From: Onthophagus taurus
Lineage: Eukaryota; Arthropoda; Insecta; Coleoptera; Scarabaeidae
DNA length: 64,000 bases
NCBI RefSeq assembly: GCF_036711975.1
Contig: NC_091971.1
Location: 27,101,501 to 27,165,500 of the forward strand
Direction of reading: 5' to 3'
A program made the position numbers and the translations under genes. The notes below the pieces were generated by a model that was given only the letters and a program-made list of their open reading frames with translations, was not told the DNA's origin and made no database searches. Shown piece after piece: positions 25,802 to 60,689 of the stretch (its first letter is position 1; every line of letters starts with the position of its first letter).

Positions 25802-27361
25802 GTCGTGGAAAAAATGTTTTAAACATAAGGATTTTTTACACCATGCACATGTTATGACCGCTATATCCCCACAGATATCACACGTTGGCTTCTCACTCGA
25901 AAAGCAAACTTCCACGGGATTTTCAAAATGGTCTGGTCTCTCCTCTATATAGCCACTTGCAAACCATGCGTATTTAAAAACATTTATAAACCGAGGGGAA
26001 GCCAACTGGTTATGCGTCAACGATTGCAATTTTAATATGTTATCCCTCTGATGTAAATTGACATCATACTGGTAAAGAATAATCTGATCAGAGAATCTTC
26101 TAATAAAATTTTTCCATATTCTGAAACCAAATACATCTAGGGGCTGTATTTGACCTGTTGTCCCTGCAGGTATAGATAAATGTTTAAAATTAGTACCTGA
26201 TGGAGTTATTTCACTAATAACTTCAGGACAATGGCCACTCCAAGAATCTAATAATAATAATGATTTAGAACCAGTATTTGGAAAATATACATTTTGGAGC
26301 CAATTTTTCATGTGTTCTGAAGTTAACTTTCCAGATTTTGATGCCAAAACGTATATATTGTCTGCTTTAAACATTGTATTTGCTACCCTCGGTCCAAAGC
26401 TGCCAGAGGGTTCTTTTAAAACAATAAAAAGTGGAGAAAGAAGTTTCCCATCAGCAGATATTACGGGTTGAATTGTGTAACTGTGCGTTGTAGATGACAC
26501 CGACTGGACCACACTTTCTACGGTTTTAACTCCTAAATCGCTTAATGTTCTTCCCGAATGGAATTCCAAGTTAAAACCGCTCTGATCCGAATTGTAGGTG
26601 TTTTCAGGTCCATATATTTGGATTTGTAGCTTTGCCTCTTTAACGAAATCTTTTGCTAAAGTTTTTACTCGATCAACATTTCCAATTTGTTTTTGGGATA
26701 GAAATTTTGTTATTTTTCGGCTTACTAACCGATTTGCTTTCTTAAAACGTTGCACCCAGCTATGAGATGCTTTGAACAGTTGAGGAGATAAATTCTTTTC
26801 ATTTCTAGCTTGTATAGCCCATCTGCGTATATCAATATCATGTAGTGGCAATTTATTATCTACGGCGGCTCTCGCTTGATTAATTACAAATTCGGTAATT
26901 TCTGCTAATTTTTCTTTGTATGTCCCTCTTTCTTCAATATATTTAGACCATCTGTGCAATTGGGTCTTTGACGTTACTTTTCGGTATTTGTTTTTTACGG
27001 TTTCTAGTTTCAAATAACCTTTCTTCCCACTTGTCCAGTAATTTACCGCCTCTAATTTGTACTCGTAGTCGATGTCATCCTTCAATGGACAATGAGCATC
27101 AGTATCTTCTACAAACCTGTCAGTTGTATCCTGGTCTTCAATAATTTGCTGACCGTCATTGATGCCATTGGATGAATCGAAAATTAATACAGTTTCGTCT
27201 TCAATTTGCATATTGTAGTCTTCCATACTTTCCATTAAAATACGCTGTATATTTTCTTTTAAACTAACTTCTGCTTCATTTACAGGAGTCTGGGGAATAT
27301 TCATAACAGTAAAAACTGTCATTAGCAAATTTAAAACGTTTATTGGGTTTATTGTAACCAT
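25772..27361 (-). CDS. DDE transposase of the long-TIR element, intact, 529 residues
   Basis: Single uninterrupted frame from ATG 27361 to the stop at 25772. Order: an acidic N-terminus (residues 1-95), a helix-turn-helix region (EYKLEAVNYWTSGKKGY onward, about 98-145), a CENP-B-like domain (FKASHSWVQRFKKANRL, about 197-213), catalytic Asp candidates in TYNSDQSGFNL (about 258), LLLLDSWSGHCP (about 372) and TGQIQPLDVFGF (about 408), and a Cys/His cluster at the end (CDICGD, CAWCKKSLCLKH, FHFCQH), likely zinc-binding. The three-Asp pattern places it in the DDE_1/pogo-like branch of the IS630-Tc1-mariner group. The last ten codons and the stop lie inside the left inverted repeat. It is probably competent; no RT-like or host function is implied. 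Confidence 0.85.
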   Translation of the reverse strand: MVTINPINVLNLLMTVFTVMNIPQTPVNEAEVSLKENIQRILMESMEDYNMQIEDETVLIFDSSNGINDGQQIIEDQDTTDRFVEDTDAHCPLKDDIDYEYKLEAVNYWTSGKKGYLKLETVKNKYRKVTSKTQLHRWSKYIEERGTYKEKLAEITEFVINQARAAVDNKLPLHDIDIRRWAIQARNEKNLSPQLFKASHSWVQRFKKANRLVSRKITKFLSQKQIGNVDRVKTLAKDFVKEAKLQIQIYGPENTYNSDQSGFNLEFHSGRTLSDLGVKTVESVVQSVSSTTHSYTIQPVISADGKLLSPLFIVLKEPSGSFGPRVANTMFKADNIYVLASKSGKLTSEHMKNWLQNVYFPNTGSKSLLLLDSWSGHCPEVISEITPSGTNFKHLSIPAGTTGQIQPLDVFGFRIWKNFIRRFSDQIILYQYDVNLHQRDNILKLQSLTHNQLASPRFINVFKYAWFASGYIEERPDHFENPVEVCFSSEKPTCDICGDIAVITCAWCKKSLCLKHFFHDFHFCQHYVE

Positions 27362-27522
27362 TGCTTCTGTCAGTTGCTCTGAAACTAAAATCTACCCACT
27401 GGGCACACGTTCTTTTATACTAGAAAAAACTATTTTGAGAAATGACCTTTAGCAAGCGGCACTAAAAAAACAAATATTGTGCCAAAATTTTTTTGGTAGG
27501 TGTATTTTTGTGTTGTATTTTT

Positions 27523-33117: not shown

Positions 33118-33780
33118 TCATATATCTAATTTGTTTATTATGCCTGCATAATAACTACCTATATTTCCTGAATCTGATTTAAAATTAACTGACCTGTTAA
33201 TGTTTTTGGTGATATAGATGGCTTCAATATTCTTTCTGTTGAATGTATCTCCTTCAGTGGTCAACACATTAGGGGTATCAAAGTTAAATTTATGACGATT
33301 CTTGATTGCATGTTGGCAAAGGGCTGTTTTATTAATAATTTTGTGTTGATTAGTATCGTATTTATGCTGTTTTATACGATTATGTAATTGTTGTTTACTT
33401 TCACCTATATACACCTTATTACAGTTATTACATTCTAATTGGTATATGGTATTAATTCTGTCCGTCTTATCTATTTTGTCTTTCATATTACTCAAAATAT
33501 TGGTTAATTTATTATTGTTATATTGTGCTAATTTAATTTCTTGAAATTCATATTTCTTAAAAATAGCTTTAATTTTATTGGTTATTGTCGGGATATATTT
33601 GATTTTATAGAATTTACTTATTTTATCTCTATCTGTAACACTCCGTACGTCTAATTCATTCGAATCATTCTGATATAAAGTTTCCGTATGTGGTAAGTAA
33701 TCTGTGATCTTTGTTTGAGTTTGGGTTACACCCTTATTCTTGCTGTCAATATTTGCATTATTATGTTTGCTTGGTCTCAT
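33118..33780 (-). CDS. Penelope-like element GIY-YIG endonuclease part
   Basis: The C-terminal half of the element's polyprotein. The GIY-YIG nuclease region spans roughly residues 107-205: CNNCNKVYIGESKQQLHNRI (the variant tyrosine/glycine core and following Arg) and later NRKNIEAIYITKNINRSVNF (downstream catalytic Glu region). A CX2C pair precedes it. The nuclease nicks target DNA to prime reverse transcription. The frame is +1 relative to the RT frame. The codons upstream of the Met at 33780 stay open back to about 33850, so the two were one protein before a one-base indel in an A-run near 33860. Confidence 0.85.
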   Translation of the reverse strand: MRPSKHNNANIDSKNKGVTQTQTKITDYLPHTETLYQNDSNELDVRSVTDRDKISKFYKIKYIPTITNKIKAIFKKYEFQEIKLAQYNNNKLTNILSNMKDKIDKTDRINTIYQLECNNCNKVYIGESKQQLHNRIKQHKYDTNQHKIINKTALCQHAIKNRHKFNFDTPNVLTTEGDTFNRKNIEAIYITKNINRSVNFKSDSGNIGSYYAGIINKLDI

Positions 33781-33826
33781 TTTTGTAATAATCTGATCTC
33801 CATTTAAGTTTGATCTTTGTTCAACA

Positions 33827-36019
33827 TTAGCAATATTGCTCTGTTGTGTGTTTATAGGTATTGATTTTTTTGACTTTATTATAATTATTGTACCAAATAT
33901 TATTAATTAATGTTCTTGGGTATGCATTTTCTAATAGGATATTATATATTTTGGTCTTTATTTCTTTCATGTATATATCATCAGTTAAAATAATAGCTCG
34001 ACGGATTAAATTATTAATAGTATTTATTATCTGAGTTCTTGGATGATTACTTAAATAATGAAGAGTTCTATTGCTACTGATGTCTTTCTTATACCAAGAT
34101 GTGTATATCTTATTGTGTTCTTTATTTATTGTAATATTCATATCCAAATATGCTATTTGTTCATTGTGTAACGTTTCGACTGTAAATTGTAAGCGTGGGT
34201 TGTATTCATTAAATTTGACCAAAAGTTGTTTATATTGATTTTTAGGTAGAATGATTAGCAAATCATCTATGTATTTTGTAATTAAGAAAGGTTTAATGAA
34301 AGTGTCGTTTAATTGTGTGTCAAGTAACGAGTTCATCACTATGCCACTCAGATTTACGCTTAAGTTGGAGCCCATAGGAAGTCCATATATTTGTTTATAA
34401 AAAGTGTTATTAAATTTAAAATAGCTGTTATGTGTACAAAGCTTTATTCCATCTAAAAATATTTTTTTGTCTTTTATGCAAGTAAAGTTTTCAATTTTAT
34501 TCCAATTTTCATCTATGATTTTAAGCATGAGTTTTAACGGAATATTTGTAAAAAGGGACTTCACATCAAAGCTTACTATGTCAATATCTTCATAGTTTTC
34601 AATCTCCAATTCATCGAGACGCTTCTTAAGCATAAAGGCATTTTTAACGTCGTAATGATTTTCATCATTTAAATTATTCAGAGATTTATTTAAAAATATA
34701 GATAACGCATTGGTAGGTCCATTTATATTATTAATGATTGGACGTAAAGGGTTATTATCTTTATGCGCTTTTAATAATCCATGTATCCTAGGTGTCACAT
34801 AATGGTTTGGTGATAATCTAAGCTTTTGTTGCTTTGTTATAAATCCTTTCTTTTCTAATATTTTCAGGTAATCATTTATGCGATTAACTAGATTAGGACC
34901 TGGATCCAATCTAGATGTTTTATAAGTATCTATATCGTTAAGTAACTCTTTCATTTTATCGTTATATTCTGATTTATACAAAAAGGCTATTTGTTTTGTT
35001 TTATCAGTCTTTATAATAACTATGTCCTTATGTTGTGTTAAAAATCTTTTCAAGAAAATCATATCTTTTATCACTGTATTATGAAATATTGAAAATGTTC
35101 TATTATTATTTAACGTCAATGATTGTTTATTTTTCATATTCTTGTTATTTCTATCTAGATAATTGGAAATTTCATTAATTATATTGCTTCTTGTTATATT
35201 AATGTGATTCTCTGAAGTCTTCAAGTTAATAAAAACTTTTTCTATGTCTATTATCATATTTAAAATGTCTTTGTGTAGAGATTTTTTATTGTTATGTGTT
35301 GTAAAGCAAAATTTTTCACCCAAAGATAAGAGATTTAGTATATTTATGGGTATTTGTAATTTTGTAAGATTCAGTATTCTACCTTTCTTGTGTAAATCGT
35401 TATAATTATTTTGTAACCAATCATCAGTATGTAAATTTATGTTAGAATTATTATGTGCATTTTCTAGGAACAAAGGTAATTTCAATCGATTTCTATTTTT
35501 CAATCGATTTGAGTTATGTAACTCATCTCTTCTTATTTTATGTGTGAACTTGATGTATCTTTGATTAGCCTTATTCAAGATGATCCTTCTGAAATTGACC
35601 TTAAATTTGTCTCCTTCATTAATGGGATTTCTAGTTATAACAAAATCAATATATCTAAAAATCTTGTTAATTAACCAGTAAGTTTGATTTATTTCATCTT
35701 TCAGAATGTTAAGGGCTATGTGTTTAGATTGCATTTTTTGTTTGTAATTTATTAGATAATCTTTATAAAAAAGGTTATCTATATTTTTCAAGTTTTTAAG
35801 AATATGATATGGTATTAAATTCATTTTAAGGGAATTTTTCAAATAAAACAATTTACAATAAGCTTTTATGGCTTTTTCGAATGTGGGTTTAAGAAGGCGC
35901 TCAACAAAGGTACTTACATTAAAACAATCAATTATTTTCTTAAAATTATCGCCGACATTGACATCTCCATCTTCTCGTTTGCAATTTCTTCTAAATTCAT
36001 GGATATTTATGTATTCCAT
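33827..36019 (-). CDS. Penelope-like reverse transcriptase, 730 residues
   Basis: Long intact frame. A Lys/Asn-rich N-terminal region (to about residue 360), then RT motifs: SPNHYVTPRIHGLLKAHKD (about 406-424), VSFDVKSLFTNIPLKLM (about 481-497, first catalytic Asp), QIYGLPMGSNLSVNLSGI (about 548-565), and KYIDDLLIILPKNQYK (about 584-599, catalytic Asp pair). The DVKSLFTNIP and GLPMGS blocks are diagnostic of Penelope-like enzymes, related to telomerase RT. The start Met (36019) lies about 10 bp inside the end of the upstream repeat. The stop at 33827 is premature relative to the nuclease because of a frameshift, otherwise the element looks nearly intact. Confidence 0.92.
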   Translation of the reverse strand: MEYINIHEFRRNCKREDGDVNVGDNFKKIIDCFNVSTFVERLLKPTFEKAIKAYCKLFYLKNSLKMNLIPYHILKNLKNIDNLFYKDYLINYKQKMQSKHIALNILKDEINQTYWLINKIFRYIDFVITRNPINEGDKFKVNFRRIILNKANQRYIKFTHKIRRDELHNSNRLKNRNRLKLPLFLENAHNNSNINLHTDDWLQNNYNDLHKKGRILNLTKLQIPINILNLLSLGEKFCFTTHNNKKSLHKDILNMIIDIEKVFINLKTSENHINITRSNIINEISNYLDRNNKNMKNKQSLTLNNNRTFSIFHNTVIKDMIFLKRFLTQHKDIVIIKTDKTKQIAFLYKSEYNDKMKELLNDIDTYKTSRLDPGPNLVNRINDYLKILEKKGFITKQQKLRLSPNHYVTPRIHGLLKAHKDNNPLRPIINNINGPTNALSIFLNKSLNNLNDENHYDVKNAFMLKKRLDELEIENYEDIDIVSFDVKSLFTNIPLKLMLKIIDENWNKIENFTCIKDKKIFLDGIKLCTHNSYFKFNNTFYKQIYGLPMGSNLSVNLSGIVMNSLLDTQLNDTFIKPFLITKYIDDLLIILPKNQYKQLLVKFNEYNPRLQFTVETLHNEQIAYLDMNITINKEHNKIYTSWYKKDISSNRTLHYLSNHPRTQIINTINNLIRRAIILTDDIYMKEIKTKIYNILLENAYPRTLINNIWYNNYNKVKKINTYKHTTEQYC

Positions 36020-36029
36020 ATTAATTATG

Positions 36030-36197
36030 TAATTATAATATATTAATTGATTAAAGAGGATTGGTTATTCTTTAATGATTAAAATCCAAATACATGAAAT
36101 TCCTCTTGATTTTGTATTTATTTTATTGTTAAGTCATTTAACGTTTCGAACTATTTACATAGTTCATCATCAGAAATCACTATAAAAAAGAAATTTA
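36030..36197 (-). repeat. Upstream pseudo-LTR of the Penelope-like element
   Basis: Direct repeat of 32573-32725, with a small GGATT insertion difference. It carries the second hammerhead-like motif and ends ten bases before the RT start codon. Confidence 0.85.
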
Positions 36198-44788: not shown

Positions 44789-47700
44789 ATGGCTCCTCCG
44801 AGCGAGCAAGCGGTTAAAGACTTGAACCCCGTGTTCGAACGACAAAACGAGTTGTATCACCAAATTTAGCGTTCGTTGGACAATTTTAAAAAACTAGCAA
44901 TAGTTAAAAGAACCCGCGGAAATATACAAAGTCGATTGGACCGTCTTGAGGTTAATTGGAATGAATTCAATAACTCGCATACATTATTGTCGAAATACAA
45001 ATCGGATTATAAGGATAAGAGTTATTTTTCGGATGACATATTCTTTACGTGCGAAGAAGAATACATAGAATCGAAAGGAGCCATGCTAGATTTTTTGAAT
45101 GATCTTTCTCTTCAAAATATTAACATTTCAACTTCAAAAAACATTCAATCTCAAGCGCACCATCTTCCTCAAATAAATTTACCGAAATTCAACGGAAAAT
45201 ATTGCAATTGGTCGCAGTTTAAAGATCTATTTATGTCCATGATTCACGATAACGATAACATTTCGGACGTGGAAAAACTCCATTACCTGAAAATGAGTTT
45301 GTCAGATGAACCATCTCAATTATTAAAGAATGTGGTAATTACAAATGATAACTTCTCTCGCGCTTGGCAAATGCTATTGGAACGTTATGAAAATAAAAGA
45401 TTATTGATTGACTCTCAATTAAACACGTTATTCAATTCTTGCTCATTAAAAAATGATTCTTCTCTTGAATTAAAACGATTGCTGGGAGAAGTTAAAGAAT
45501 CTCTTGGTGTTTTGGAAGCTTTAGGTTGCCCTATAAAACATTGGGATCATGTTCTTGTATACATGATTGTACGAAAGCTCGATGTTGACACGATAAAAGA
45601 TTGGGAAAAATCTTTAGCAAATAATCAAAATCCACCATCCTATGACGAACTTGAATTGTTTCTATTAGGACGACTTCATGCTCTGGAAACTATTGAACAA
45701 TTAGCTAATCGCAAAATTAATCAAAATTCAGCAACGTACAATAAAAATTCAAATGAAAAGTCTCTCAATGCATCTCCTTTCAAAAGCGCTTGTGTCCTCT
45801 GTCAAGCATCACATTATCTTTCTGGTTGTCAACAATATTTAACAAAAACGCCTAATCAGCGATTAGATTTCGTCGTTTCGCAGAATTTATGCTTCAATTG
45901 TCTTGGACCACATCTTCGTAAAAATTGTAGAATAAGTAAAAGATGTCGAATTTGTGAAAAACAGCATCATACTTCACTCCATGATTATAAACCATCAACA
46001 GATCATACAAATTCTCACTCTCAAAAGGATTCAAACAATCTTTCCATTCAACTCCAAGTAAACGCTCCAACTTTCACGCCAATTTCAACAACTTCCAGCC
46101 ATCTCATTCATTCACATCACGTCCACACTCCTGTGTTACTAGCCACTGCTCTGGTTGGAGTAACTTCTCATCTGGGCGAACGTCGTATAGTACGAGCTCT
46201 TATCGATCAGGGATCTGAAGTGAGTTTTATTTTGGAAGGATTGGTTCAACAATTAAAGTTACCTCGACATTCTAAAACCATACCCATTTCTGGAATTGGA
46301 TCCCAACAGACCAGTATTTCACACGAATCAGTACAAATACAATTATTTTCTAGAATAAACGAATCCTATACCTTTACGGAAGATGCATTAATATTATCTA
46401 AATTAACGGCATACCTGCCTCAAAGAAATACCGTCCCGTTAGATTTTGATCTTAGCGACATATTATTGGCTGGCCCAGATTTTACCTCATCTAAGAAAAT
46501 AGACTTAATTCTAGGAGTCGGCTTTTATTCTAAAATGATTCAAACGGGAATTCGTAAAAATCATGATGGCTCTTTGATGGCGCAACAAACTTCACTTGGA
46601 TGGATATTATCTGGAAGTTTCTCATCGTCTCCTGAAGAATTAAAGGCTTACGGTTTTCAATGTTCTATAGATTACGAATTTCTTGATCTGATGCAAAGGT
46701 TCTGGAAACAAGAAGAAAATTTATGTAACTTACCACCGTGCCTTTCACCAGAAGAGGTTAAATGTGAGGAACATTTTGCAAAAACTTACTCTCGTAATTC
46801 GAACGGACGCTTTATCGTTCGCCTTCCATTTAGCAAATCGCCCCAAGAATTGGGAAATTTATACACAGCAGCGCTACAAATGTTTAAGAGAATGGAATTA
46901 CGTTTTGCAAGACATGAGAACTTAAAAAAAGAATATAGTAAGTTCATGAATGAATATTTATTGCTAAATCACATGCATTTAATTCCATTTCCATCACTTG
47001 AAATTCCACATTATTTTCTGCCACATCACGTAATCCGTGAAAGTAGCTCCACTACAAAATTGAGAGTTGTATTCAACGGGTCACAAAAAACAACAACAGT
47101 TGTGTCTTTAAACGATTGTTTATTTACTGGCCCAAAATTACAAACTGAACTCGTTGATGTTTTGCTGCGTTGGAGACGTTATCCAATTGTTTTTGCATCT
47201 GACTTAGAGAAGATGTATAGACCAATTCGTGTACATCAAGATGATTTACCATTCCAATAAATTATTTGGAGAGAAAATTCATCACAGCCAATTCAAGTAT
47301 GTCAACTTTCAACTGTTACTTATGGTCTCTCTAGCGCTCCATATTTAGCTCTTAGATGCTTACGTCAGCTCGCTGATGATAACTCAGAAAACCTTCCTCA
47401 AGGCTCAGAAATCCTTAAATTGAATACATATGTGGATGATATCTTCTCTGGAGCAAATAGCATAGACAAAGTTCACGAAATAATCTTCGAGCTCAATAAA
47501 ATTCTAAAATTAGCTGGTTTCACTGCAAGGAAGTGGGTTTCAAATCATCAAGATGCTCTTGTTCATTTACCTTTAGATGTATTATCTAGTGCCCATACTT
47601 ATTCAGTTGAAGAAGATAATAAACTACGCGCCTTGGGTTTATTATGGAATAACATTGAAGATCAGTTTTTATTCGTGTGTCGCGCTTTTTATAACATGTC

Positions 47701-50005
47701 CAAATCGACAACCAAACGTGAAGTTCTGTCTTTTATTGTTCGTTTATTCGACCCTCTCGGTTGGCTTTCTCCATTGACAATTATTGCAAAAATTTTTATG
47801 CAACAACTATGGGTGCAACATCTCGATTGGGATGAGAATCTCCCTAATAATCTGGAAGAAAAGTGGCAGACATTCATAAAAAGTTATAATCAAATTCCGA
47901 CAATTCATGTACCTAGATGGCTTGGGACTTCCGATAGAACTGAATTAATCGAAGTTCATGGGTTTTCTGACGCTTCCTTCGACGCGTACGGGGCAGTCGT
48001 ATATCTTCGCGTTTTAACAAATAAAGAAGTGCGCGTTTCGTTACTAATTTCAAAATCAAAAGTGTCGCCTCTAAAACGCGTTACCATTCCCCGTCTCGAA
48101 CTATGTGCGGCAGTTCTGCTTACTCGTTTAATTAAACGTGTTTAAAACGTGTTAAATCTCTCAGACTGTCCGGTGCACTTGTGGACTGATTCAACAGTGG
48201 TTCTTGCATGGATTAAAAGTCATCCATCTCGATGGAAAGACTACATAAGAAATAGAGTCACAGAGATTCACGAGTTGGTCAACGTTCAATGGCATCACGT
48301 ACCAAGTGGTGACAACCCAGCGGATTTGGTTTCTCGAGGTGTTTCCGTGGCCAAATTACAAGAAAATTCTCTTTGGTGGGTTGGACCTTCATGGCTTGTC
48401 GCATCTCCCTCTGAGTGGCCATCAATTCATCTCAATTCTTCTGATGAGACTGATCTGGAAAGAAGACTGAAAAGTTCAAATATTTCAACTAAAACTGATG
48501 ATGGTTGGGACCTAAAACATCGCTATTCTTCCCTGAGAAGGCTGCTTCGTATCACCGCGTGGTGTATGAGAATTTTTAAAAGAAATAATCTTTATTCTCA
48601 TGTTTCAGACGTTCTATCTCCTGCCGAAATTAATAATGCTCTAATGTTTTGGGTTCGAGAGAGTCAGCAGCTTCAATTTTCCGAAGAAATTACCTTATTA
48701 TCGTCAAAAAGAGTCATTCCAAAATCAAGTTCCCTCTTCCGACTGTCTCCGTTCATTGATGGGTTTAATGGGTTTCTCCGAATAACTGGACGTCTCAAAT
48801 TCGCCAACTTGGAATATGATGAAAAACATCCTATTATCATCCCCAAGCTGTCAGTTATCACAAGTCTCATCATTGATCATCACCATAAATCTACACTTCA
48901 TGGAGGTACACCTTACCTTGTCTTCAATCCGACGACGATTTTGGGTGGTTGGTGGTCGTGTTCCTGTCCGTTCTTATATCAATAGATGTATGGTGTGTGC
49001 GAAACATAAAGTTATAACCAGCCAACAACTAATGGGACAGCTTCCTCCTGCCCGAGTGAATCAATCCCGACCATTTTTACACTCTGGCGTCGATTATGCA
49101 GGACCATTTCAATTACGAATAATGAGAGGACGAGGTGGTAAACTCTACAAGGGTTATTTGATCATTTTCATTTGTTTAAGTACATCAGCGGTTCACCTGG
49201 ACGTCGTTACCGATTATACCACTGATGGATTTCTTGCCGCCTACAAAAGATTCACCGGCCGTAGAGGAATATGTGAATGCCTCTATAGTGATTGTGGTAC
49301 AAACCTGATCGGAGCCGATAGAGAACTTCGAGCTCTTTTCAATAAATCTTCCAATGAATGGAAACATCTAGCGAACATTCTAAGCAACGATGGTACAAAC
49401 TGGAAGTTTAATCCGCCTTCAGCGCCTCACTTTGGCGGAAAATGGGAAGGAAATATCAGAATTGTTAAAAGTCACTTAAAGAAAATCATTGGTTCTACTA
49501 CACTCACGTATGAAGAATTCGTTACTGTCTTAGTTCAAATTGAAGCCGTTATGAATCACGGCCTCTCTGCGCAGTTTCCAATGATCCTCTTAATTACGAT
49601 GTATTTACACCCGGTCACTGTTTGATTGGAAGTTCTCTAGCCGTTGTACCTGAACCATCTCTTCTTGATTTAAAAACCTCTCGTCTCTCCAGATGGCAAC
49701 ATCTAAGACAAATGATTGAAAGTTTTTGGAAACATTGGTCCGTTTATTACCTCCAATCTATACAAAACGCCAGTAAGTGGTTCGAAGCCAAGAATATTCC
49801 ACAGTTAGGACGGTTAGTCTTAATTAAAGATGAACGTCTTCCTCCTTCGAAATGGGCTATTGCGCGAATAACAGAAATGCACTCTGGTCCTGATGGTCGC
49901 ATAAGAGTTGTAACTTTACGAACACCAACAACGACACTCACGCGGCCCATAACAAAAATTTGTTTATTACCGGAAGTTGAAACCGATGACAGCGATACTC
50001 AATAA
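44789..50005 (+). pseudogene. BEL/Pao gag-protease-RT-RNaseH-integrase polyprotein, three stops and two frameshifts
   Basis: ATG at 44789 with TAG at 44867; the frame reopens to 47260. Gag (DUF1759 region near 45170-45690), zinc knuckles CVLCQASHYLSGC and LCFNCLGPHLRKNC (45790-45990), protease ALIDQGSEVSFI (46196), RT with KLRVVFNGSQK and SDLEKMYRPIRVH, TAA at 47258, then the same frame with NTYVDDIFSG (47423). RNase H FSDASFDAYGAVVY and, after TAA at 48143, LWTDSTVVLAWI. Integrase zinc region CMVCAKHK, catalytic positions in HSGVDYAGPF, YSDCGTNLIGAD and FGGKWEGNIR, with frameshifts near 48915 and 49590. The C-terminal part ends at 50005. Damage is light for 5.2 kb. Confidence 0.93.
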
Positions 50006-50102
50006 GTACCAATAAGCACGTTTCGATTGATCGATTTTGTTTTGTAATTAAGAATTTCACTCATGTTTTTTGTGTTGCCTATATTTAGGCAAGGGGGCGA
50101 AA

Positions 50103-50413
50103 TGTTAAAAATGTTAATTAACTCTTTAATTTAAATAATTTTATTCGTCTTAAAAAACATTTGTATCTAGTTACCTCTCGTTCAATTAAAATAAAAAAAA
50201 ACATCTGTCAAAAATATAAAAGTGCGTCATCTCATTTTTCGTTTTTCTCAAGTAACTTCTTCAGATCGCCTCATATAAAGTTTATTCAGTGATAATGCTT
50301 CAAATAATGAAAAGTAAGACTATTTTTATCTAATTCAATGACATTTTATTTTATTCGAAACAATTCATTTTCATTGTTTATTAACTGAGTAAATTCTAAA
50401 CTCTTGCAAAACA
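50103..50413 (+). repeat. 3' LTR of the BEL/Pao element
   Basis: Starts TGTTAAAAATGTTAATTAAC after the polypurine tract and ends GCAAAACA. TATAAAG near 50274 and AAAATATAAAAGTG near 50211 are TATA-like. It abuts, without spacer, the integrase of the opposite-strand BEL/Pao element. Confidence 0.85.
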
Positions 50414-53056
50414 GTTGTACTACCAACTATTTTCTTCAAATGATTCTTTACACTCTTGATGTTGGATTCCCATTTTCCTCCAAAATGGGGTGCTGACGGA
50501 GGATTGAATTTCCATGCTGTCCCATCGTCAGCAAGAAGTTGAGCGAGTGCCCTCCATTCCTTGTTTGCAGCTGAAAATAAATTACGAAGCTCCCGATCTG
50601 CTCCCACCAGGTTAGTACCACAGTCACTGTAAATACATTTGCATAATCCTCTTCTACCAGTGAACCGTTTATAGGCTGCGATAAAACCACTGGTAGAGTA
50701 ATCGGTAGCAACTTCCAAATGAATGGCAGATGTGCTTAAACAAACAAAAAGAATTAAGTACCCCTTGTAGAATCTCCCCCCTCTTCCGCGGATCGTACGA
50801 AGTTGAAAAGGACCAGCATAATCCACTCCAGAATGAAGAAATGGTCGTGAAGGTGTAACTCGCGGTGGTGGAAGCTGACCCATTAATTGTTGACTTGTAA
50901 TAGCTCGTTGTTTTTCGCACTGCATGCATCGATGTATGAATGATCGTATCGAAACCTCCAATAATCCAGAATCTTCGTCTAAGGAAAGAAGTGGTCAACT
51001 GCGTGCCCCCATGCAATGTAATTTGATGATAATGTTCAATAATTAAAGATGCTAATCTGGTATTCTTTGGAATGATTAGAGGGTGCTTCTCATCCCAATC
51101 AAGATTGGAAAAGCGTAGACGTCCAGTCAAACGTAGTAACCCATCACCATCCAAAAATGGGATCAGCCTGAATAGGGAACTACTCCGTGGAATGGCCCGT
51201 TTTAATGAAAGTAGCTTGATTTCTTCACAAAAGTGAAGTTGCTGAGATTTACGTACCCAAAACAACAGAGCTTGATTTAATTCAACAGGTGACAAAACAT
51301 CTGGAACACAAGAACTTTTATGAAATTGAAATATTCGTCTACACCAAGCCGTGATACGGATTAATTTAGTTAAGCATGAATATTTGTATTTTAAATCCCA
51401 ACCATCCTCTTCCTTGGAAACGATGTTGGAATTGAGAGGTCTCATCTCCCGATTGACTCCTTCTTCCGGAAGTGGGTCAACAGAAGGCCACATGGATGAT
51501 GGAGAACTAAGCCAAACCGGTCCTGACCACCATAACGAATCGCTTTGCATCCTGGACAAAGATGCACCTCGAGAAACCAAATCAGCAGGATTTTCAGCAC
51601 TTGGTACATAATGCCAGTGAGCACCAGAAAGTTCTTATATTTCAATCACGCGGTTTTGAACGAATTCTTTCCACTTTGAAGGTTGATTTCGAATCCAAGC
51701 TAAGACCACAGTGGAATCGGTCCATAAATGAACAGTATATTTTGAAAAGTCTAAGACACTCCGAATCCGATTTATTAACCGAGTAAGTAACACTGCGGCG
51801 CTCAGCTCGAGTCGCGGTATTTTCATACGCTTGAGTGGAGATACTTTTGATTTAGATATTAACAAAGATACACGGATCTTTTTACTAGTGAACACCCGCA
51901 CATACACTACCGCACCGTACGCACTTGATGAAGCGTCCGCGAACCAGTGCAATTCAATGAGGTTAGTTGCACGTGAAAGTCCGAGCCACCGAGGTATTTT
52001 TATAGTATTGACTTGATCAAAATTCGCGACGAATAAAGTCCACCGATTTTCGAGATCACTGGGTAAAGCATCATCCCTGTCGATTTGACGTGTCCAAAGG
52101 TCCTGCATTATGATTTTCGCGGTTATAATAAGCGGAGAGAGCCACCCGACGGGGTCAAAGAGACGCGCGATAAATGATAATACTTCACGCTTAGTAATGG
52201 TTTTGGTATTTTCTAAATATGATTGACTTTTAAAAATAAAACAATCCTCGCGATTATTCCATAACAAACCAAGAGCTCGGGTTGATGTTTCCTCAACATT
52301 CCAGGTGAAGGACGTTGATATTAGCTCTTCTGAGACATGGTTGAGAATATCTGGATGATTAGACATCCACTTTTTTGCTTTAAAGCCGCCCGCCATCAAT
52401 ACTTGGTTTAACTGAAAAATGACTTCTTGAATTTCGTCAAGATTGTCTGCGCCAGACAAAATGTCATCAACATATGTATTTTTACGAATAACAGTAGAAC
52501 CTAATAGTTGCGTTTCACTGTGTTCTTCAGCTAGCTTGTTTAGACACCGTATTGCCAAGTAAGGAGCGCATGCTAAACCGTACGTTACCGTTGATAACTG
52601 GTATATTTGAATTGGATTTGATGGATCTTCTCTGCAAAGTATTCTTTGATAACTACAGTCATCAGGATGTACCCTTATCTGGCGGTACATCTTCTCTAGA
52701 TCGCAAGAAAATACCATTGCATAACATCTCCAACGAAGAATAATATCCAACAGTTCTGTTTGAAGCTTTGGACCAGTGTAAAGACAATCATTCAATGAGA
52801 TGTTATTGGAAGTTTTTTGTGATCCATTAAAAACAACTCTTAATTTAGTCGTTGTACTGCTTTCACGAATCACTCCATGATGGGGAAGATAATAAGTGGA
52901 GTAAATCGACGGTAATGGAATGAGAATCATGTGATCGAGTTTGAGATATTCAGACATGAATTTTATATATTCAGTTTTGAAATTGAGATTTTTTGCGAAG
53001 CGCATTTCTAAGTTGTGGCACTTCTTTTTAAACAAGCAAAAGGGCAAACAAAACAC
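50414..53056 (-). pseudogene. Second BEL/Pao pol (RT to integrase), opposite strand, truncated both sides
   Basis: A close relative of the neighbouring element. RT begins near 52995 (MRFAKNLNFKTEYIKFM) with KLRVVFNGSQKTSN, SCDLEKMYRQIRVHPDD and NTYVDDILSGADN; RNase H FADASSSAYGAVVY and LWTDSTVVLAWI; an in-frame TAA (about 51637) then HYVPSAENPADLVSRG. A one-base frameshift near 50965 separates LRRRFWIIGG from VSIRSFIHRCMQC. The integrase core retains GVDYAGPF, YSDCGTNLVGAD and FGGKWESNIK and stops at KKIVGSTT where the other element's LTR begins. Gag, protease and LTRs are missing. Confidence 0.93.
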
Positions 53057-53304
53057 CAGACGATGTCAAGGTTACGTAAAGGTTTACTTACCTCAGCTAG
53101 CCTTTAGATAGTGGAGACGGCGTGGATTTAAAGTAATATTCAAAGATGTTAATGGGCGCCACGGACTTATATAAAACCTTTACGAACGTACTTGACCACA
53201 CCCTAATCAAGTCCGAACTTAGAGTTACAGAAAGGAATGAGAACAAATAACCAACAACCACATTTGGAACTGAAGAAAGAGTATCTATATTATATGTAAT
53301 CGTA
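53057..53304. other. Spacer with a TATA box, possible LTR fragment
   Basis: No coding frame. CTTATATAAAACC near 53164 is TATA-like. Sequence on the far side of the foldback (from 60690) would have been contiguous with it before that insertion. Confidence 0.35.
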
Positions 53305-53351
53305 GAAAAACATACGATTGTGAAGTTAGCCATAGATTCTAGCCATAGATT

Positions 53352-53985
53352 TAAAAATCGAAAAATGACCGATTTTTGCAACTCGAAACGCAAATTAAAA
53401 TTCATATTTGAGTTTAGCACTCTTAGAATAACCCGTATACAAAAATTTACGGGGGGGTGTTTTCATTTAAGGGAGTAAAAAAATCCCAAAGTTGTGAACA
53501 TTGCGTGCGCGCGTATACTGTTCGACCAAAATCGAAAAATGACTAATTTCTGCAACTCGAAACGCAAATTAAAATTCATATTTGTGTTTAACGGTCTTAG
53601 AATAACCCGTATACAAAAATTTACGGGGGGGTGTTTTCATTTAAGGGAGTAAAAAAATCCCAAAGTTGTGAACATTGCGTGCGCGCGTATACTGTTCGAC
53701 CAAAATCGAAAAATGACTAATTTCTGCAACTCGAAACGCAAATTAAAATTTATATTTGAGTTTAGCGGTCTTAGAATAACTCGTATACAAAAATTTACGG
53801 GGGGGTGTTTTCATTTAAGGGAGTAAAAAAATCCCAAAGTTGTGAACATTGCGTGCGCGCGTATTCTGTTCGACCAAAATCGAAAAATTACTAATTTCTG
53901 CAACTCGAAACGCAAATTAAAATTCATATTTGAGTTTAGCGATCTTAGAACAACCCCTATACAAAAATTTATGGGGGGGTAATTG
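53352..53985 (-). repeat. Left array of 174-bp tandem repeats
   Basis: The word AAAATCGAAAAAT recurs at 53354, 53528, 53702 and 53876, exactly 174 bases apart. Each unit contains CGTATACAAAAATTTACGGG and a GCGTGCGCGCGTATAC segment. The last unit decays into GGGGGGGTAATTG. Confidence 0.95.
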
Positions 53986-54017
53986 TAATTAACGTTTTTA
54001 AAACATATGCTTCGTTT

Positions 54018-56773
54018 ACTGGTGTGAAGTTATCCATAAATCCCAGCAATAAATTTAAAACATTAATAATTCCGTAACCAATACGATTTGGGTAACCAAA
54101 TTTCACACACAGGTCACTCTTACCCTCAAGAACAGCTAACCACCCCCATTTGGTAAAAAAAAATTTTTTCAACCCTCACCCCCGAAAAAGGGATGTTTTC
54201 GCCCTGATGGGCACCTTCGAATTAAACGAAATTCTACCACATAATAGAACACACTTCTAAGTATTTCTATCAATTTTCAAAACACCGTAAGCCCTAACGG
54301 TTTTCGAGAAAAAAAATCAGTATTATAAACCGCGGATGGGACTTTAGGGGTAAATTTGACCCCGATGGGCACCTCCAAAATTGATGAAATTTTAGGATAA
54401 TTTAGAGGATGCCTTTACCAATTGAAATCAACCATCCAAACACCGTAAGGTATAACGGTTTCCGAGAAAAAAAATTTGTTATTAGACGCTATAAGTATAC
54501 ACCGCGGCGCGGACTTTGGGGGTGAATTTGACCTCGTTGGGCACCTCCAAAATTGATGAAATTTTAGGATGATTTAGAGGATGCCTTTAGCAATTGAAAT
54601 CAACCATCCAAACACCGTAGGGTATAACGGTTTCCGAGAAAAAAAATTGGTTATTAGACGCTATAAGTATACACCGCGGCGCGGACTTTGGGGGTGAATT
54701 TGACCCCGTTGGGCACCTCCAAAATTGATGAAATTTTAGGATGACTTAGAGGATGCCTTTAGCAATTGAAATCAACCATCCAAACACCGTAAGGTATAAC
54801 GGTTTCCGAGAAAAAAAATTTGTTATTAGATACTATAGGTATACAGCGCGGCGCGGACTTTGGGGGTGAATTTGACCCCGTTGGGCACCTCCAAAATTGA
54901 TGAAATTTTAGGATGATTTAGAGGATGCCTTTAGCGATTTAAATCGACCGTCAAAACACCGACCACGGCTTCAGAGAAACAATTTTGTTATTAAATTGTA
55001 CACGTATCTAGAGCAGATAGTAGGTGCCTTTAGCGATTTTAATAGATTATGAAAACTGCGAAACTCTTAATATTTCATGGAAAAAATAAATTTTGTTAAG
55101 AAAGGCATTTTGTAATTTTATGGGCTTTCAGTCGTTACTGGCAAAGGGTAAGAACTCCGCCACGTGCAGTTACAAAAGGCGCAGGTATTAAGGAAAAAAT
55201 ATGTCCATATTTTCTGCATTATAAGTGCATTCCGGGAAAATAGTTGCCGACTTATTCGGTGTTGTTTTAAAGCGTCATACACATTTTTTAGATTTTGCCA
55301 GAAGAGTGAGGAGTAAACTTATAATATATAAAGATTCCTCAGCTATTGCAGAGATCAGCTGTTCTAGTTATCTCTTGTTAAAACCAGTGACCAGTGAATA
55401 TGTCGACGAAATTACTGTTTTTGGGCGATAGTAATTTTTGTCGAATGCTACGTACTAGAAGTAACTACAAAGTAAGTATTTGTTCTAACAGATGTGAAAT
55501 TAATTCCTACTAATGGTATATATTTTAGGACGACAATCAAAACAGTCAAGCAACGGAAAATATTTCCTCGACTTAGCAGTAGGCGGTCAAATAATACTAA
55601 AACTTTTGAGGCGCGCAAAGTGTATTCCAAAAACATGTTCCCCTTGGTTTTGTGGAGATATTGTTGAACGTCATATCGTTATAATGATAAGAACTAAAGA
55701 TATACTCCATAAAAGATCACCATCCCAACTGAAGTCCCAATATTGTCACCTCTTCCGCTTCCTTCTTTCCTTAAATCCTAAAGGAATAAAAAATTTGCAC
55801 AATTCCTCCCTGCAAAAACTTCGAGTCTGTGAACGTAAGATATTATAACTTCTATGTCATGCTATAAATAAATACTCTCCATGCCTTTATAGGAAATCAA
55901 TCATTACATTCGACGGTTTTGTGCTGAAAAGCAAATCAATTGTACCGACATTGAAGCAATTGTTAACAGAACCATGATGGAAGGGTAACAAAACGTAAAA
56001 ATGTTTCTTTTCTTAAGTATTTAATACAAATTTCTACACAGGGATGGCATTTACTTAAATGAACAAGGGTTGGAAACGGCCTGGAACGCGGTAGCAAGTA
56101 ATTATAATCATATTCTCAATCCATTACAAAATTTAATTATAAGTAAAACAGACCATTAATATAATAAATTTCTTTCTCTATCAAAAGTTTTTTTTCTATC
56201 AAAAGTCCACCCTCCAAATCATCCTAAAATTTCATCAATTTTGGAGGTGCCCAACGGGGTCAAATTCACCCCCAAAGTCCGCGCCGCGCTGTATACCTAT
56301 AGGGTCTAATAACAAATTTTTTTTCTCGGAAACCGTTATACCTTACGGTGTTTGGATGGTTGATTTCAATTGGTAAAGGCATCCTCTAAATCATCCTAAA
56401 ATTTCATCAATTTTGGAGGTGCCCAACGGGGTCAAATTCACCCCTAAAGTCCCATCCGCGGTTTATAAGACTGATTTTTTTTCTCGAAAACCGTTAGGGC
56501 TTACGGTGTTTTGAAAATTAATAAAAATACTTAGAAGTGTGTTCTATTATGTGGTAGAATTTCGTTTAATTCGAAGGTGCCCATCAGGGCGAAAACATCC
56601 CTTTTTCGGGGGTGAGGGTTGAAAAATTTTTTTTTTACCAAATGGGGGTAGTTAGCTGTTCTTGAGGGTAAGAGTGACCTGTGTGTGAAATTTGGTTATC
56701 CAAATCGTATTGGTTACGGAATTATTATTGTTTTAAGTTTATTGCTGGGATTTATGGATAACTTCACACCAGT
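54018..56773. mobile_element. Inner foldback, 172-bp repeats in arms, own 9-bp target duplication
   Basis: The termini are ACTGGTGTGAAGTTATCC and its reverse complement. GCTTCGTTT flanks both ends (54009-54017 and 56774-56782). The left arm (to about 55000) includes about four 172-bp units (TTGATGAAATTTTAGGA at 54381, 54553, 54725 and 54897); the right arm (about 56205-56773) has fewer than two. Terminal sequence resembles that of the outer element (TGTGAAGTTA then CCATA), so the two are related families. The loop (about 55060-56200) carries an intron-containing gene remnant. Confidence 0.9.
55400..56159 (+). pseudogene. SGNH-hydrolase-like gene remnant, multi-exon, in the inner foldback loop
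   Basis: Exon 1 (55400-55471) MSTKLLFLGDSNFCRML holds a GDS block, followed by donor GTAAGT. Exon 2 (from 55529, after TATTTTAG) reads YFLDLAVGGQIILKLL and IVIMIRTKDILHKRSP, like the Gly block and a degenerate GxND block, and may end at a GTAAGA donor near 55838. Exon 3 (55893-55984) and exon 4 (56042-56159) join in frame across a GT...CAG intron to give EGDGIYLNEQGLETAW, like the final D..HLN.G block with His replaced. Phases between exons 1-2 and 2-3 do not match, so indels are likely. SGNH enzymes are esterases/lipases; two expected catalytic positions are altered here. Family call is from motif order only. Confidence 0.45.
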
Positions 56774-56819
56774 GCTTCGTTTTTGATTTTTTCTATTTAT
56801 TCATCCTTAGAGTTGACTT

Positions 56820-57225
56820 GTGTAAACATAGGGTGTATGTTAGGTGTATGTTCTTTCATGTGGCCCCACACATAAAAATCAAGGGGCGTCAAATCAAGAC
56901 TCCTTGCAGGCTATGGAATTAGATCTCCTCTCCCAATCCAACCATTAGGAAACATTTCATTTAATGAATTTTCAACATTTTGGGAATAGTGTGCAAGGCA
57001 TTCATCTGGAAAGCCACATTACATCTGTTTTCTAAAGGTACATGGTCAAGCAGGTCTATTAAATTGTTATGTAAAAATTCATTGTATGCTGCGCTAGTTA
57101 AACCATCCGGTAAAAAATAAGGACCAATTAAATTATTTCCAATGAGCCCCATCCACAAGTTTACGCAAAATTTTCTTTGATTGTTCATTTCCCTTGTTAG
57201 ATGCGGATTTTGAATACGGTGAAAA
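56820..57225 (-). pseudogene. Tc1/mariner-group transposase C-terminal fragment
   Basis: Minus strand: NPHLTREMNNQRKFCVNLWM then GLIGNNLIGPYFLPDGL, a LLDHVPLENRCNVAFQ block where the second catalytic Asp should follow (Asn here), and, after a frame change, GWIGRGDLIP with a stop, then LDLTPLDFYVWGHMKEH carrying the third acidic residue. The order is that of the catalytic domain of insect mariner-like enzymes. N-terminal half and terminal repeats missing. It sits in the outer foldback's loop next to the inner foldback's insertion site. Confidence 0.8.
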
Positions 57226-57319
57226 TGATTTAAGAATACAGTTCATTAATGGATGTCCGAGAATTGTTAAGAAAAACTAGTAACTTCCCAACGGAAAGAG
57301 TACAACATATAGTATCAAA

Positions 57320-58575
57320 ACAAATTTTTTACTTCGGTCGATGCATCAGACTTTGATATTATTACTCTCAGTGAAACTTGGGTCAAGAAGAGCGTCCTAG
57401 ACTACGAGATCTTTCCAGACAGGTATGACGTTTTTAGATGTGATCGATCTTTCCATAAGGGTGGAGAGATGTTACTGGCTGTTAATTCCGGAGTTGCTAC
57501 TTCGAATATCATGATTGCCTCCTGTCCTATTGAATCAATTGACTTGAAAGCTGTACGGATTGACTTTAAAAAGACGAAATCGGCCTTTAACATTGTTGTA
57601 TGCTATTTCCCACCTGTTACACCTGGAGGAATGTATGTATAGTTACACCTTCGATTACATTGAATCAATGTTGGATATGTCTTTGGATACCATAGTCATG
57701 GGTGATTTTAATATTGAAGTAATAATGACTTTCTGCAATTAAATAATGTAATGAATATCATTGATAGAACTCTTGATTTGATACTTGCTTCCTCAAACTT
57801 GAGTTTCAAATTAAACAGTGAGACTTTACATTGGTACGAGAAGATAATTACCAATCGGCATTACTACTTACTATTTCGGTAACGGTGCCTACACATTTGA
57901 TAGCTCGAGATGTTATCTTATCTGCCTGACATGTACGAGGTACTGCTTAACATCGACTGGACTCATCTATTTACGTTATCATCGGTTGAACAATACTGTA
58001 ATGTTTTTTATGAAGCATTATACAACGACCTGGACGCTCACGTACTTAAATCTGAGGGCAAGCATGCAAGCTCGAAATATCCTGTATGGCATTCAATTAA
58101 CCTAATAAGAATGCTTAGATTAAAAAAACACCACCATAAATTGTATAGAAAAACTCATTGCAGATATCATCGCACAAGTTTATGTCAAATCTCTGAGGGA
58201 CATAAGAAAAGAACCAAAAAACGTTTGGCGTTTTGTTAATATAAGCAGAAACAATATAAGATCTCCAGGCTCTCTTAAGTGTGTCCGATTTGCCAACAGT
58301 AGTTAACTTATTTGTCGATCATTTTGAGACTATGTACTGTCCTGCATCATTTGGTAACCTACTGGTAACGATCACGCTGTTTATGATACTAATTCTGTCA
58401 CCTTTGGTATCTCCGAAGTCAGTTACGACGAAATGGTTGAATCTTTCAAAAAATTCAAGACAAAGGCTACAATTGGCCCAGATGAGATTCCTACATTTTT
58501 AGTCAACGATTGCGCCCCTACACTCTCACATCCGTTCTTACATATTTTCAACCTAATAATCAAAAACTCTGAATT
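57320..58575 (+). pseudogene. Jockey/CR1-type LINE fragment: endonuclease and start of RT
   Basis: Endonuclease blocks FDIITLSETWVKKSVLDYEI and YDVFRCDRSFHKGGEMLLAV, then VMGDFNIEV, in shifting frames; a linker with KYPVWHSINLIRMLRLKKHH; and the first RT block KATIGPDEIPTFLVNDCAP followed by HIFNLIIKNSEFPS. It is cut off mid-domain at about 58575 by the repeat array. Multiple stops. A different family from the LINE at 39.8-42 kb, judging by motif wording. Confidence 0.85.
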
Positions 58576-60660
58576 TCCAAGCGCGCACGCGATGTTCAGA
58601 ACTTTGTGATTTTTTTACTCCCTTAAATGAAAACACCCCCCCGTAAATATTTGTATACGGGTTACTCTAAGACCGCTAAACTCAAATATGAACTTTAATT
58701 TGCGTTTCGAGTTGCAGAAATGAGTGATTTTTCGATTTTGGTCGAACAGTATACGCGCGCAAGCGATGTTCACAACTTTGGGATTTTTTTACTCCCTTAA
58801 ATGAAAACACCCCCCCGTAAATTTTTGTATACGGGTTATTCTAAGACCGCTAAACTCAAATATTAATTTTAATTTGCGTTTCGAGTTGCAGAAATTGGTG
58901 ATTTTTCGATTTTGGTCGAAACGTATACGCGCGCACGCGATATTCACAACTTTGGGATTTTTTTACTCCCTTAAATGAAAACACCCCCCCGTAAATTTTT
59001 GTATACGGGTTATTCTAAGACCGCTAAACTCAAATATTAATTTTAATTTGCGTTTCGAGTTGCAGAAATTGGTGATTTTTCGATTTTGGTCGAAACGTAT
59101 ACGCGCGCACGCGATGTTCACAACTTTGGGATTTTTTTACTCCCTTAAATGAAAACACCCCCCCGTAAATTTTTGTATACGGGTTATTCTAAGACCGCTA
59201 AACTCAAATATTAATTTTAATTTGCGTTTCGAGTTGCAGAAATTGGTGATTTTTCGATTTTGGTCGAAACGTATACGCGCGCACGCGATATTCACAACTT
59301 TGGGATTTTTTTACTCCCTTAAATGAAAACACCCCCCCGTAAATTTTTGTATACGGGTTATTCTAAGACCGCTAAACTCAAATATTAATTTTAATTTGCG
59401 TTTCGAGTTGCAGAAATTGGTGATTTTTCGATTTTGGTCGAAACGTATACGCGCGCACGCGATATTCACAACTTTGGGATTTTTTTACTCCCTTAAATGA
59501 AAACACCCCCCCGTAAATTTTTGTATACGGGTTATTCTAAGACCGCTAAACTCAAATATTAATTTTAATTTGCGTTTCGAGTTGCAGAAATTGGTGATTT
59601 TTCGATTTTGGTCGAAACGTATACGCGCGCACGCGATGTTCACAACTTTGGGATTTTTTTACTCCCTTAAATGAAAACACCCCCCCGTAAATTTTTGTAT
59701 ACGGGTTATTCTAAGACCGCTAAACTCAAATATTAATTTTAATTTGCGTTTCGAGTTGCAGAAATTGGTGATTTTTCGATTTTGGTCGAAACGTATACGC
59801 GCGCACGCGATGTTCACAACTTTGGGATTTTTTTACTCCCTTAAATGAAACCACCCCCCCGTAAATATTTGTATACGGGTTACTCTAAGACCGCTAAACT
59901 CAAATATGAACTTTAATTTGCGTTTCGAGTTGCAGAAATGAGTGATTTTTCGATTTTGTTCGAACAGTATACGCGCGCAAGCGATGTGCACAACTTTGGG
60001 ATTTTTTTACTCCCTTAAATGAAAACACCCCCCCGTAAATTTTTGTACACGAGTTATTCTAAGGCCGCTAAACTCAAATATGAATTTTAATTTCCGTTTC
60101 GAGTTGCAGAAATTAGTCATTTTTCGATTTTAGTCGAACAGTATACGCGCGCACGCGATGTTCACAACTTTGGGATTTTTTTACTCCCTTAAATGAAAAC
60201 ACCCCCCCGTAAATTTTTGTAAACGGGTTATTCTAAGACCGCTAAACTCAAATATGAAATTTAATTTGCGTTTCGAGTTGCAGAAATTGGTGTTTTTTCG
60301 ATTTTGGTCGAACAGTATTCTCGCGCACGCGATGTTCACAACTTTGGGATTTTTTTACTCCCTTAAATGAAAACACCCCCCCGTAAATTTTTGTAAACGG
60401 GTTATTCTAAGACCGCTAAACTCAAATATGAATTTTAATTTGCGTTTCGAGTTGCAGAAATTGGTGTTTTTTCGATTTTGGTCGAACAGTATTCTCGCGC
60501 ACGCGATGTTCACAACTTTGGGATTTTTTTACTCCCTTAAATGAAAACACCCCCCCGTAAATTTTTGTATACGGGTTATTCTAAGAGTGCTAATCTCAAA
60601 TATGAATTTTAATTTGCGTTTCGAGTTGCAGAAATCGGTCATTTTTCGATTTTAAAATCT
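58575..60660 (+). repeat. Right array of ~174-bp tandem repeats, 12 units
   Basis: Inverted orientation relative to the left array. CCCCCCCGTAAAT recurs about every 172-175 bases, twelve times. The middle units (about 58900-59800) are nearly identical to one another, while the outer units resemble the left array more. The array cuts off the LINE fragment at about 58575. Confidence 0.95.
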
Positions 60661-60689
60661 ATGGCTAACTTCACAACCGTGAAAAACAT

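What the first reader, a model, noticed from the sequence alone, without database searches (positions are those of the whole stretch)
53314..60680. Two foldback elements nested one inside the other, each with its own 9-bp target duplication
Outer: GAAAAACAT at 53305-53313 and 60681-60689. Inner: GCTTCGTTT at 54009-54017 and 56774-56782. Both terminate in related sequence (ACGGTTGTGAAGTTAGCC and ACTGGTGTGAAGTTATCC) and both build arms from ~172-174-bp tandem repeats of different sequence. This shows that one transposition system, with a 9-bp stagger typical of the Mutator/Foldback group, moved two families, the later one into the loop of the earlier. I am not aware of this exact pair being described.
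Basis: partly seen in the sequence, partly recalled or inferred. Interest (0 to 1): 0.88.

Follow-up and report, generated by a model that had tools for sequence, protein, structure and literature searches.

The report
Nested foldback jumping genes, dung beetle
A stretch of what is probably a dung-beetle genome holds one hairpin-shaped jumping gene inserted inside another; both belong to large, recently active families that share the same short end signal, so they are new members of a kind of element already known from flies, nematodes and another beetle.

Summary
The outer (53314-60680) and inner (54018-56773) elements each have inverted tandem-repeat arms and a perfect 9-bp duplication. Another outer copy (L002) has the uninterrupted site: 1293 bp gapless, 8 mismatches, the 9-mer once. 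So the inner one jumped into the outer one.

The genome carries 194 exact 19-base ends of the inner kind, 65 of the outer and 66 of a third, looser family. In 44 elements, chosen among the best matches, 37 have exact 9-bp duplications, 3 have 8 bp, 3 one mismatch and 1 none; mispaired ends matched in 0 of 1892. The families share only about 35 terminal bp; their repeat units are unrelated. Inner arms hold 1.4 to 36.7 units and change by whole units. The inner core carries an intron-bearing gene remnant with borderline SGNH/GDSL similarity.

This fits non-autonomous foldback elements mobilised in trans by one transposase with a 9-bp stagger, most likely Mutator superfamily (Rehavkus/Foldback type). 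No transposase could be linked to these ends. The architecture matches published Tetris, Tm1 and Rehavkus-1_TC.

The parts
53305..53313 (.). outer target-site duplication, left copy GAAAAACAT
   Evidence: 14 of 15 outer elements examined, this one included, have an exact 9-bp duplication
53314..53353 (+). outer left terminus (ACGATTGTGAAGTTAGCC...), with a 13-bp tandem duplication
   Evidence: family ends
53354..53980 (+). outer left arm, 3.6 copies of a 174-bp unit
   Evidence: same phase x.60 in L002
53981..54017 (+). outer core, left part, ending in the first copy of the inner 9-bp duplication
54009..54017 (.). inner target-site duplication, left copy GCTTCGTTT
54018..54961 (+). inner left arm: ~306-bp terminal part (ACTGGTGTGAAGTTATCC...) and 3.6 copies of a 172-bp unit
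54962..56208 (+). inner core, 1247 bp in this copy (matched full length in 14 other copies, about 1242 bp there)
55400..56159 (+). gene remnant with short introns and borderline SGNH/GDSL-hydrolase similarity inside the inner core; broken here
   Evidence: same gene model as the nr protein LOC111429034 of Onthophagus taurus
56209..56773 (-). inner right arm, 1.4 units and terminal part
56774..56782 (.). inner target-site duplication, right copy GCTTCGTTT
56783..58580 (+). outer core, right part; pieces of it match six other outer copies (L002, L003, L005-L008); holds reading-frame pieces that look like a non-LTR retrotransposon (57313-58609, by eye, no Pfam hit)
58581..60653 (-). outer right arm, 11.9 copies of the 174-bp unit
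60654..60680 (-). outer right terminus (reverse complement ACGGTTGTGAAGTTAGCC...)
60681..60689 (.). outer target-site duplication, right copy GAAAAACAT

Best explanation
Both are non-autonomous foldback DNA transposons. Shown: each is a unit with a common terminus of about 35 bp, long inverted arms made of tandem units, a family-specific core and a 9-bp target duplication; the inner one inserted into the core of an outer one. Inferred: one transposase encoded elsewhere recognises the shared terminus, cuts both ends and inserts with a 9-bp stagger; arms, repeat units and core are passengers. Arms grow and shrink by whole units (unequal exchange, slippage or gap repair), and cores can be captured genomic DNA, including an intron-bearing SGNH-like gene. 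The transposase is most likely of the Mutator superfamily, Rehavkus/Foldback branch.
For: 9-bp duplications: 14 of 15 outer, 17 of 19 inner (other 2: 8 bp), 6 of 10 third family (1 with 8 bp, 3 with one mismatch); mispaired control 0 of 1892; the 37 exact duplications are 75% A+T. Empty site in one copy. Whole-genome ends 194/65/66, backward-pattern control 0 in each search; neighbouring ends within 16 kb occur as + then - (43, 28 and 19 pairs) and never as - then + (inner list 100 of 194 ends; 4 same-strand neighbours in the third family). Ends alike over 29-34 bp, units unrelated. Arm lengths at a fixed phase on each core side in 15 inner elements and 7 outer arms. 14 other inner cores differ from each other at only 0-12 of ~1242 positions, and the window's outer core from L002 at 8 of 1293: recent movement. 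Many Mutator-like transposases in the genome, some with open frames: PF20700, 122 hits. Similar architecture in Rehavkus-1_TC of another beetle, Tetris and Tm1.
Against: No transposase gene was found inside the foldback copies that were read, or linked to these termini. Some foldback-like elements use a P-type transposase (Galileo), so structure alone does not fix the superfamily. Copies examined were among the best-scoring ones, not a random sample. The third family fits less well: 6 of 10 exact duplications, and of four copies read one (L059) shows no tandem array and two others unequal ones. The window's outer right arm is 13 bp off the phase seen in other copies, which its missing 13-bp terminal duplication explains.
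Confidence: 0.78

Rival explanations
1. An autonomous member with a transposase between such arms exists among the copies not read, so the families are internal-deletion or core-swap derivatives of it.
For: Few copies were read inside: 19 of roughly 95-100 inner elements, besides the window's own outer element only the first 1.8 kb of seven outer elements (L002-L008), and 4 third-family elements. Some pairs are long (9.2 kb outer C11:10398719, 9.9 kb third C7:3128413, 15.7 kb third C1:19208587).
Against: 18 of 19 inner elements read carry the same core or a variant of it and 1 has no core; L043, read in part, has it too. No PF20700 (105 of 122 compared) or PF10551 (16) hit lies inside an end pair.
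Confidence: 0.3
2. The elements are moved by a P-superfamily (Galileo-like) transposase.
For: Galileo is foldback-like with internally repeated ends.
Against: Duplications here are 9 bp (37 of 44) or 8 bp (3 of 44); the authors of Tetris and Tm1 take 8-10 bp as Mutator-like. P-type duplications of 7-8 bp are recalled, not looked up. No search for P-type transposases was run.
Confidence: 0.07
3. The outer and inner families use different, unrelated transposases and their ends are alike by convergence.
For: Units, cores and subterminal parts are unrelated.
Against: 29-34 bp of terminus align at 82-88% between the three families (0 of 300 shuffles as good in each comparison), with the same 9-bp stagger.
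Confidence: 0.08
4. The arms are an assembly artefact or ordinary satellite arrays without transposition.
For: Long arrays of near-identical units are hard to assemble; exact unit numbers may be wrong.
Against: Target duplications and an empty site; the same phase at both core borders in copies on many contigs.
Confidence: 0.02

Closest known systems
Rehavkus-1_TC (Tribolium castaneum; Repbase report cited in PMC10218199; Rehavkus row of Table 1 in PMC6446971; passages of both papers seen)
   Same: Beetle DNA transposon with tandem units (164 bp, mostly 5 or 8 in a row) in its inverted termini; Rehavkus has 9-bp duplications.
   Different: 9.5 kb long; Rehavkus elements encode a transposase with a PHD finger; none was found in the families here.
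Tetris (Drosophila virilis, PMC4079207; passages seen)
   Same: Non-autonomous foldback, arms with ~220-bp tandem units, 8-10-bp duplications, units partly derived from the flanking terminal domain, shares ends with another family (DAIBAM), transposase not found.
   Different: Only three structurally complete copies reported; no conserved reading frame in the middle; here roughly 100 inner copies, and a conserved gene remnant in 18 of the 19 read.
Tm1 (Meloidogyne, PMC3169594; passages seen)
   Same: Foldback-like composite ends, 9-bp duplications, several groups sharing ends, a histone-hairpin motif that may be acquired from the host, nested elements.
   Different: Short 13-15-bp units; a Phantom-type FLYWCH-MULE transposase in one group; low copy without signs of recent transposition.
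FB/NOF of Drosophila melanogaster (recalled, no call)
   Same: Foldback arms of tandem units, variable arm length, 9-bp duplications (recalled).
   Different: 31-bp units (recalled); no NOF-like gene linked here.

Membership tests
Foldback-type elements (structural class) | long inverted arms made largely of tandem repeats around a middle domain | tested here: met
   inner and outer families; third family only in part
Foldback-type elements (structural class) | arm length variable between and within copies | tested here: met
   1.4 to 36.7 units in 15 inner elements, whole-unit steps
Mutator superfamily | 8-11-bp target duplication | tested here: met
   40 of 44 are 8 or 9 bp exact; range from PMC6446971
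Mutator superfamily | transposase with a MULE/Mutator DDE domain between matching ends | tested here: inconclusive
   Mutator-like genes exist but none lies in an end pair examined; MULE family A has other ends, ends of family B not established
Rehavkus | 9-bp duplication and tandem-repeat-bearing ends | tested here: met
   definition
Rehavkus | transposase with PHD finger | not tested
Phantom (Tm1-like) | FLYWCH plus MULE transposase | not tested
   FLYWCH (PF04500) was not searched in the genome; the MULE proteins of L019, L030 and L031 scanned with Pfam showed no FLYWCH
Galileo / P superfamily | short (7-8 bp, recalled) target duplication | tested here: not met
   37 of 44 are 9 bp, 3 of 44 are 8 bp
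SGNH/GDSL hydrolase (cargo of the inner core) | Pfam PF13472 at its cut-off | tested here: inconclusive
   33.0 bits against cut-off 32.9 for the L046 frame; 22.3 bits for P0001; structure model uninformative (pLDDT 38.8)

The most novel reading that the evidence does not exclude
An end of about 35 bp is the only thing one transposase needs, and unrelated DNA has repeatedly been built into foldback arms and cores around it. In this genome that has produced at least three families, turned arms into satellite-like arrays that step by whole units, and spread an intron-bearing SGNH-like gene, still annotated as a gene, to perhaps a hundred sites (extrapolated from 18 of 19 copies read).
Probability: 0.35. 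Interest if true: 0.5.

Novelty: new member of a known kind. Interest (0 to 1): 0.36.

Why it matters
It gives a clean natural set (hundreds of near-identical ends, unrelated arm types, a proven nested insertion) to test what a foldback transposase recognises and how foldback arms lengthen into satellite arrays, a question raised for Tetris and for satellite DNAs of Tribolium. It also warns annotators: a beetle gene model (LOC111429034) matches transposon cargo, and all 14 PF13472 (SGNH) hits that one search lists on contigs C1-C6 lie inside inner-type elements (7 further hits on C8, C10 and C11 could not be placed fully).

Tried and rejected
Transposase hunt. PF10551 gave 16 hits. Family A (L017, L018, L020-L026, L028) ends in TGTGTCTAGGTACACG-like sequence where its ends could be read. 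For family B (L019, L027, L029) the ends were not established; a third-family end lies about 4.9 kb from L027, but no matching left end was found in 9.5 kb. L031 (ZSWIM-like, intact 390-aa frame; its other three matches are 27-29% identical) and L030 are single copy; around L031 only weak end-like matches (3 to 5 mismatches) were found in 9.2 kb. PF20700 gave 122 hits, 114 of 565 candidates scored; the only compared one within 5 kb of an end, C2:27657487, lies outside that end, which seems to be a truncated inner-type terminus. PF21056 did not complete.

Cargo. Searches against solved structures gave no meaningful match; NCBIfam none; the AlphaFold model was too poor to use and was not searched. 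A paper search on SGNH/esterase genes in transposons failed and was not repeated, so I make no claim that such cargo is unreported.

Arm homogenisation. Left and right arms of one element are more alike than shuffled pairings when the window copy is included (0 of 2000 shuffles as low). Without it the effect is small (2.72% against 2.83% mean difference, 23 of 5000 as low). An earlier rougher cut was distorted by indels. I treat it as weak.

A terminus-like site in the outer repeat unit was not significant (20 of 300 shuffles as good). The match of the inner unit to its own terminal region (0 of 300) lies right beside the array and may be only the array's worn edge.

Rows left out of counts: L043 (no right end in the fetched piece) from the duplication and arm counts; L039, L043, L046, L051, L052 from the core and arm comparisons (L046 and L051 are but differ at 579-594 columns because of an extra stretch).
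Full report
Host. The window lies in a 290.8-Mb genome of 33 contigs. The only protein at E 0.001 or better that matched a frame of the inner core (1 of 6 candidates) is an uncharacterized Onthophagus taurus protein, LOC111429034. Stretches of 107, 31 and 37 of its 176 residues are found letter for letter in the core of L044. The host is therefore very probably this dung beetle or a close relative. The genome itself is unnamed, so this is inference.

Observation.

Other copies. Searches list many near-identical ends. I fetched 20 regions of the inner family, chosen among the best-scoring ones: 19 elements, of which one (L043) runs beyond its fetched piece. With the window copy that leaves 19 measured elements. 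17 of 19 have an exact 9-bp duplication and 2 an 8-bp one. For the outer family I fetched end pieces of 14 elements: 13 of 14 are exact, and so is the window copy. One (C8:16852465) has none. For the third family, found through a shared end pattern, 6 of 10 are exact, 1 has 8 bp and 3 have one mismatch. Pairing left and right flanks of different elements gives 0 matches of 8 or more bases in 1892 trials. The 37 exact duplications are 75% A+T; I saw no clear motif.

Nesting. Leaving out the inner element and one 9-mer gives a sequence that matches outer copy L002 over 1293 bp without gaps, with 8 mismatches. The matched part of L002 has the 9-mer once. If both 9-mers are kept, 919 of 1293 positions differ. 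The order of events is thus shown, by one empty copy. Timing: the outer core differs by 0.6% from L002, so the outer insertion is recent and the inner one more recent still. Yet the inner core differs at 29-35 positions of ~1242 from 14 other copies that differ at 0-12 among themselves. A diverged sub-lineage of the inner family was therefore still mobile lately. This is inference from divergence, without a clock.

Genome-wide. Exact 19-base ends: inner 194 (96+98), outer 65 (32+33), third 66 (31+35); backward control patterns 0 in each. Neighbouring ends closer than 16 kb are + then - in 43, 28 and 19 cases and never - then +; same-strand neighbours are 0, 0 and 4 (the inner list shows only 100 of 194 ends). 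Median spans of these pairs are 5.7, 3.9 and 2.7 kb.

Anatomy. The three termini align over 29-34 bp (82-88% identity, 0 of 300 shuffles as good), whereas the 172-, 174- and ~154-bp units show no similarity to one another. In the third and inner families the unit resembles part of its own terminal region (0 of 300 shuffles), as reported for Tetris; for the inner family this may be the edge of the array itself. In 15 inner elements with a full core, window copy included, the arm on one side of the core holds n+0.62 units and the other n+0.42 (.62-.68 and .41-.50 with small indels), n from 1 to 36. Seven outer arms show the same rule.60 on one side (two arms) and .91 on the other (five arms); the window's right arm measures 11.84, 13 bp short, as its terminus lacks a 13-bp duplication. 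Arms hence change by whole units while core borders stay fixed. One copy (L052) has no core and is a 3.1-kb palindrome with 96.7% identity. Two copies (L046, L051) have a longer variant core. The third family is looser: L060 has arrays of about 154 bp in both arms, L058 one of 153 bp, L057 units of about 180/363 bp, and L059 none.

Cargo. The inner core holds a gene remnant with short introns, ending near DGIYLNEQG. Pfam sees the L046 frame as Lipase_GDSL_2, just at the cut-off (33.0 against 32.9 bits), and the OSK domain, itself SGNH-like (recalled), below its cut-off (22.4 against 27). The annotated protein P0001 scores 22.3 bits, below the cut-off. Of 21 PF13472 hits in the genome, all 14 on contigs C1-C6 lie inside inner elements; for the 7 on C8, C10 and C11 the list of inner ends is incomplete, though C10:4665093 lies in L046. 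Introns imply capture as DNA rather than through RNA (inference). The outer core has pieces that read like a non-LTR retrotransposon by eye, without a Pfam hit.

Mechanism. Shown: boundaries, duplications, nesting, shared ends, near-identical copies. Inferred: a transposase supplied in trans cuts at the shared end with a 9-bp stagger. The genome has many Mutator-like transposases (PF20700: 122 hits, several with open frames of 540-636 residues and no stop), but no link to these ends was found; the one MULE family whose ends I could read has different ones. A 9-bp duplication with tandem-unit arms is what the literature gives for Rehavkus (Table 1 of PMC6446971) and for Rehavkus-1_TC of Tribolium, with 164-bp units in its inverted ends (PMC10218199). 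The papers on Tm1 and Tetris say that foldback shape arises in more than one superfamily.

Literature. I saw passages, not whole texts, of PMC4079207, PMC3169594, PMC6446971, PMC13359780 and PMC10218199. PMC13359780 surveys arthropod MULEs; its main text holds neither 'Onthophagus' nor 'foldback'. A search for papers with at least two of Onthophagus, foldback, Rehavkus and foldback element returned 27, of which 15 were listed, none with Onthophagus. I found no report of this pair, but the searches that were answered were few and narrow, several failed, and Repbase could not be searched.

Verdict. New families of foldback elements, a proven nested pair, very probably one shared transposition system; superfamily likely but not proven.

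Noticed in passing
L057-L060; 66 ends genome-wide: A third, looser family (end TGTGAAGTTACCCATAAAT; ends ACCAG and ACCCG in 5 of the 6 element pairs) shares the terminus; L058 contains an hAT-like and L059 a mariner-like transposase frame (by eye), probably nested.
   Followed up: partly
L046 and L051: Variant inner cores (1748 bp as cut, with a 7-bp microsatellite); the L046 frame keeps a GTND motif where L044 and P0001 read RTKD, so two sub-lineages of the cargo coexist.
   Followed up: partly
L052 (C3:9695869-9705800), element 3148 bp: An inner-family copy without any core: a 3.1-kb palindrome (96.7% identity) with an intact 9-bp duplication.
   Followed up: no
   Followed up: no
window 44870-53065: Two BEL/Pao-like retrotransposons (the left one by eye) lie next to the outer element, in opposite orientation; one frame of the right one was scanned with Pfam (Peptidase_A17, RVT_1).
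   Followed up: no
window 246-923, 11164-12795, 25772-27391, 33118-36064: Reading frames that look like Harbinger-, pogo/Tigger- and Penelope-type elements (by eye): the window is dense in transposons.
   Followed up: no
L002 1-1416 against C2:26340107-26344461: A repeat beside one outer copy is uninterrupted there but split by a MULE family B piece on C2.
   Followed up: partly
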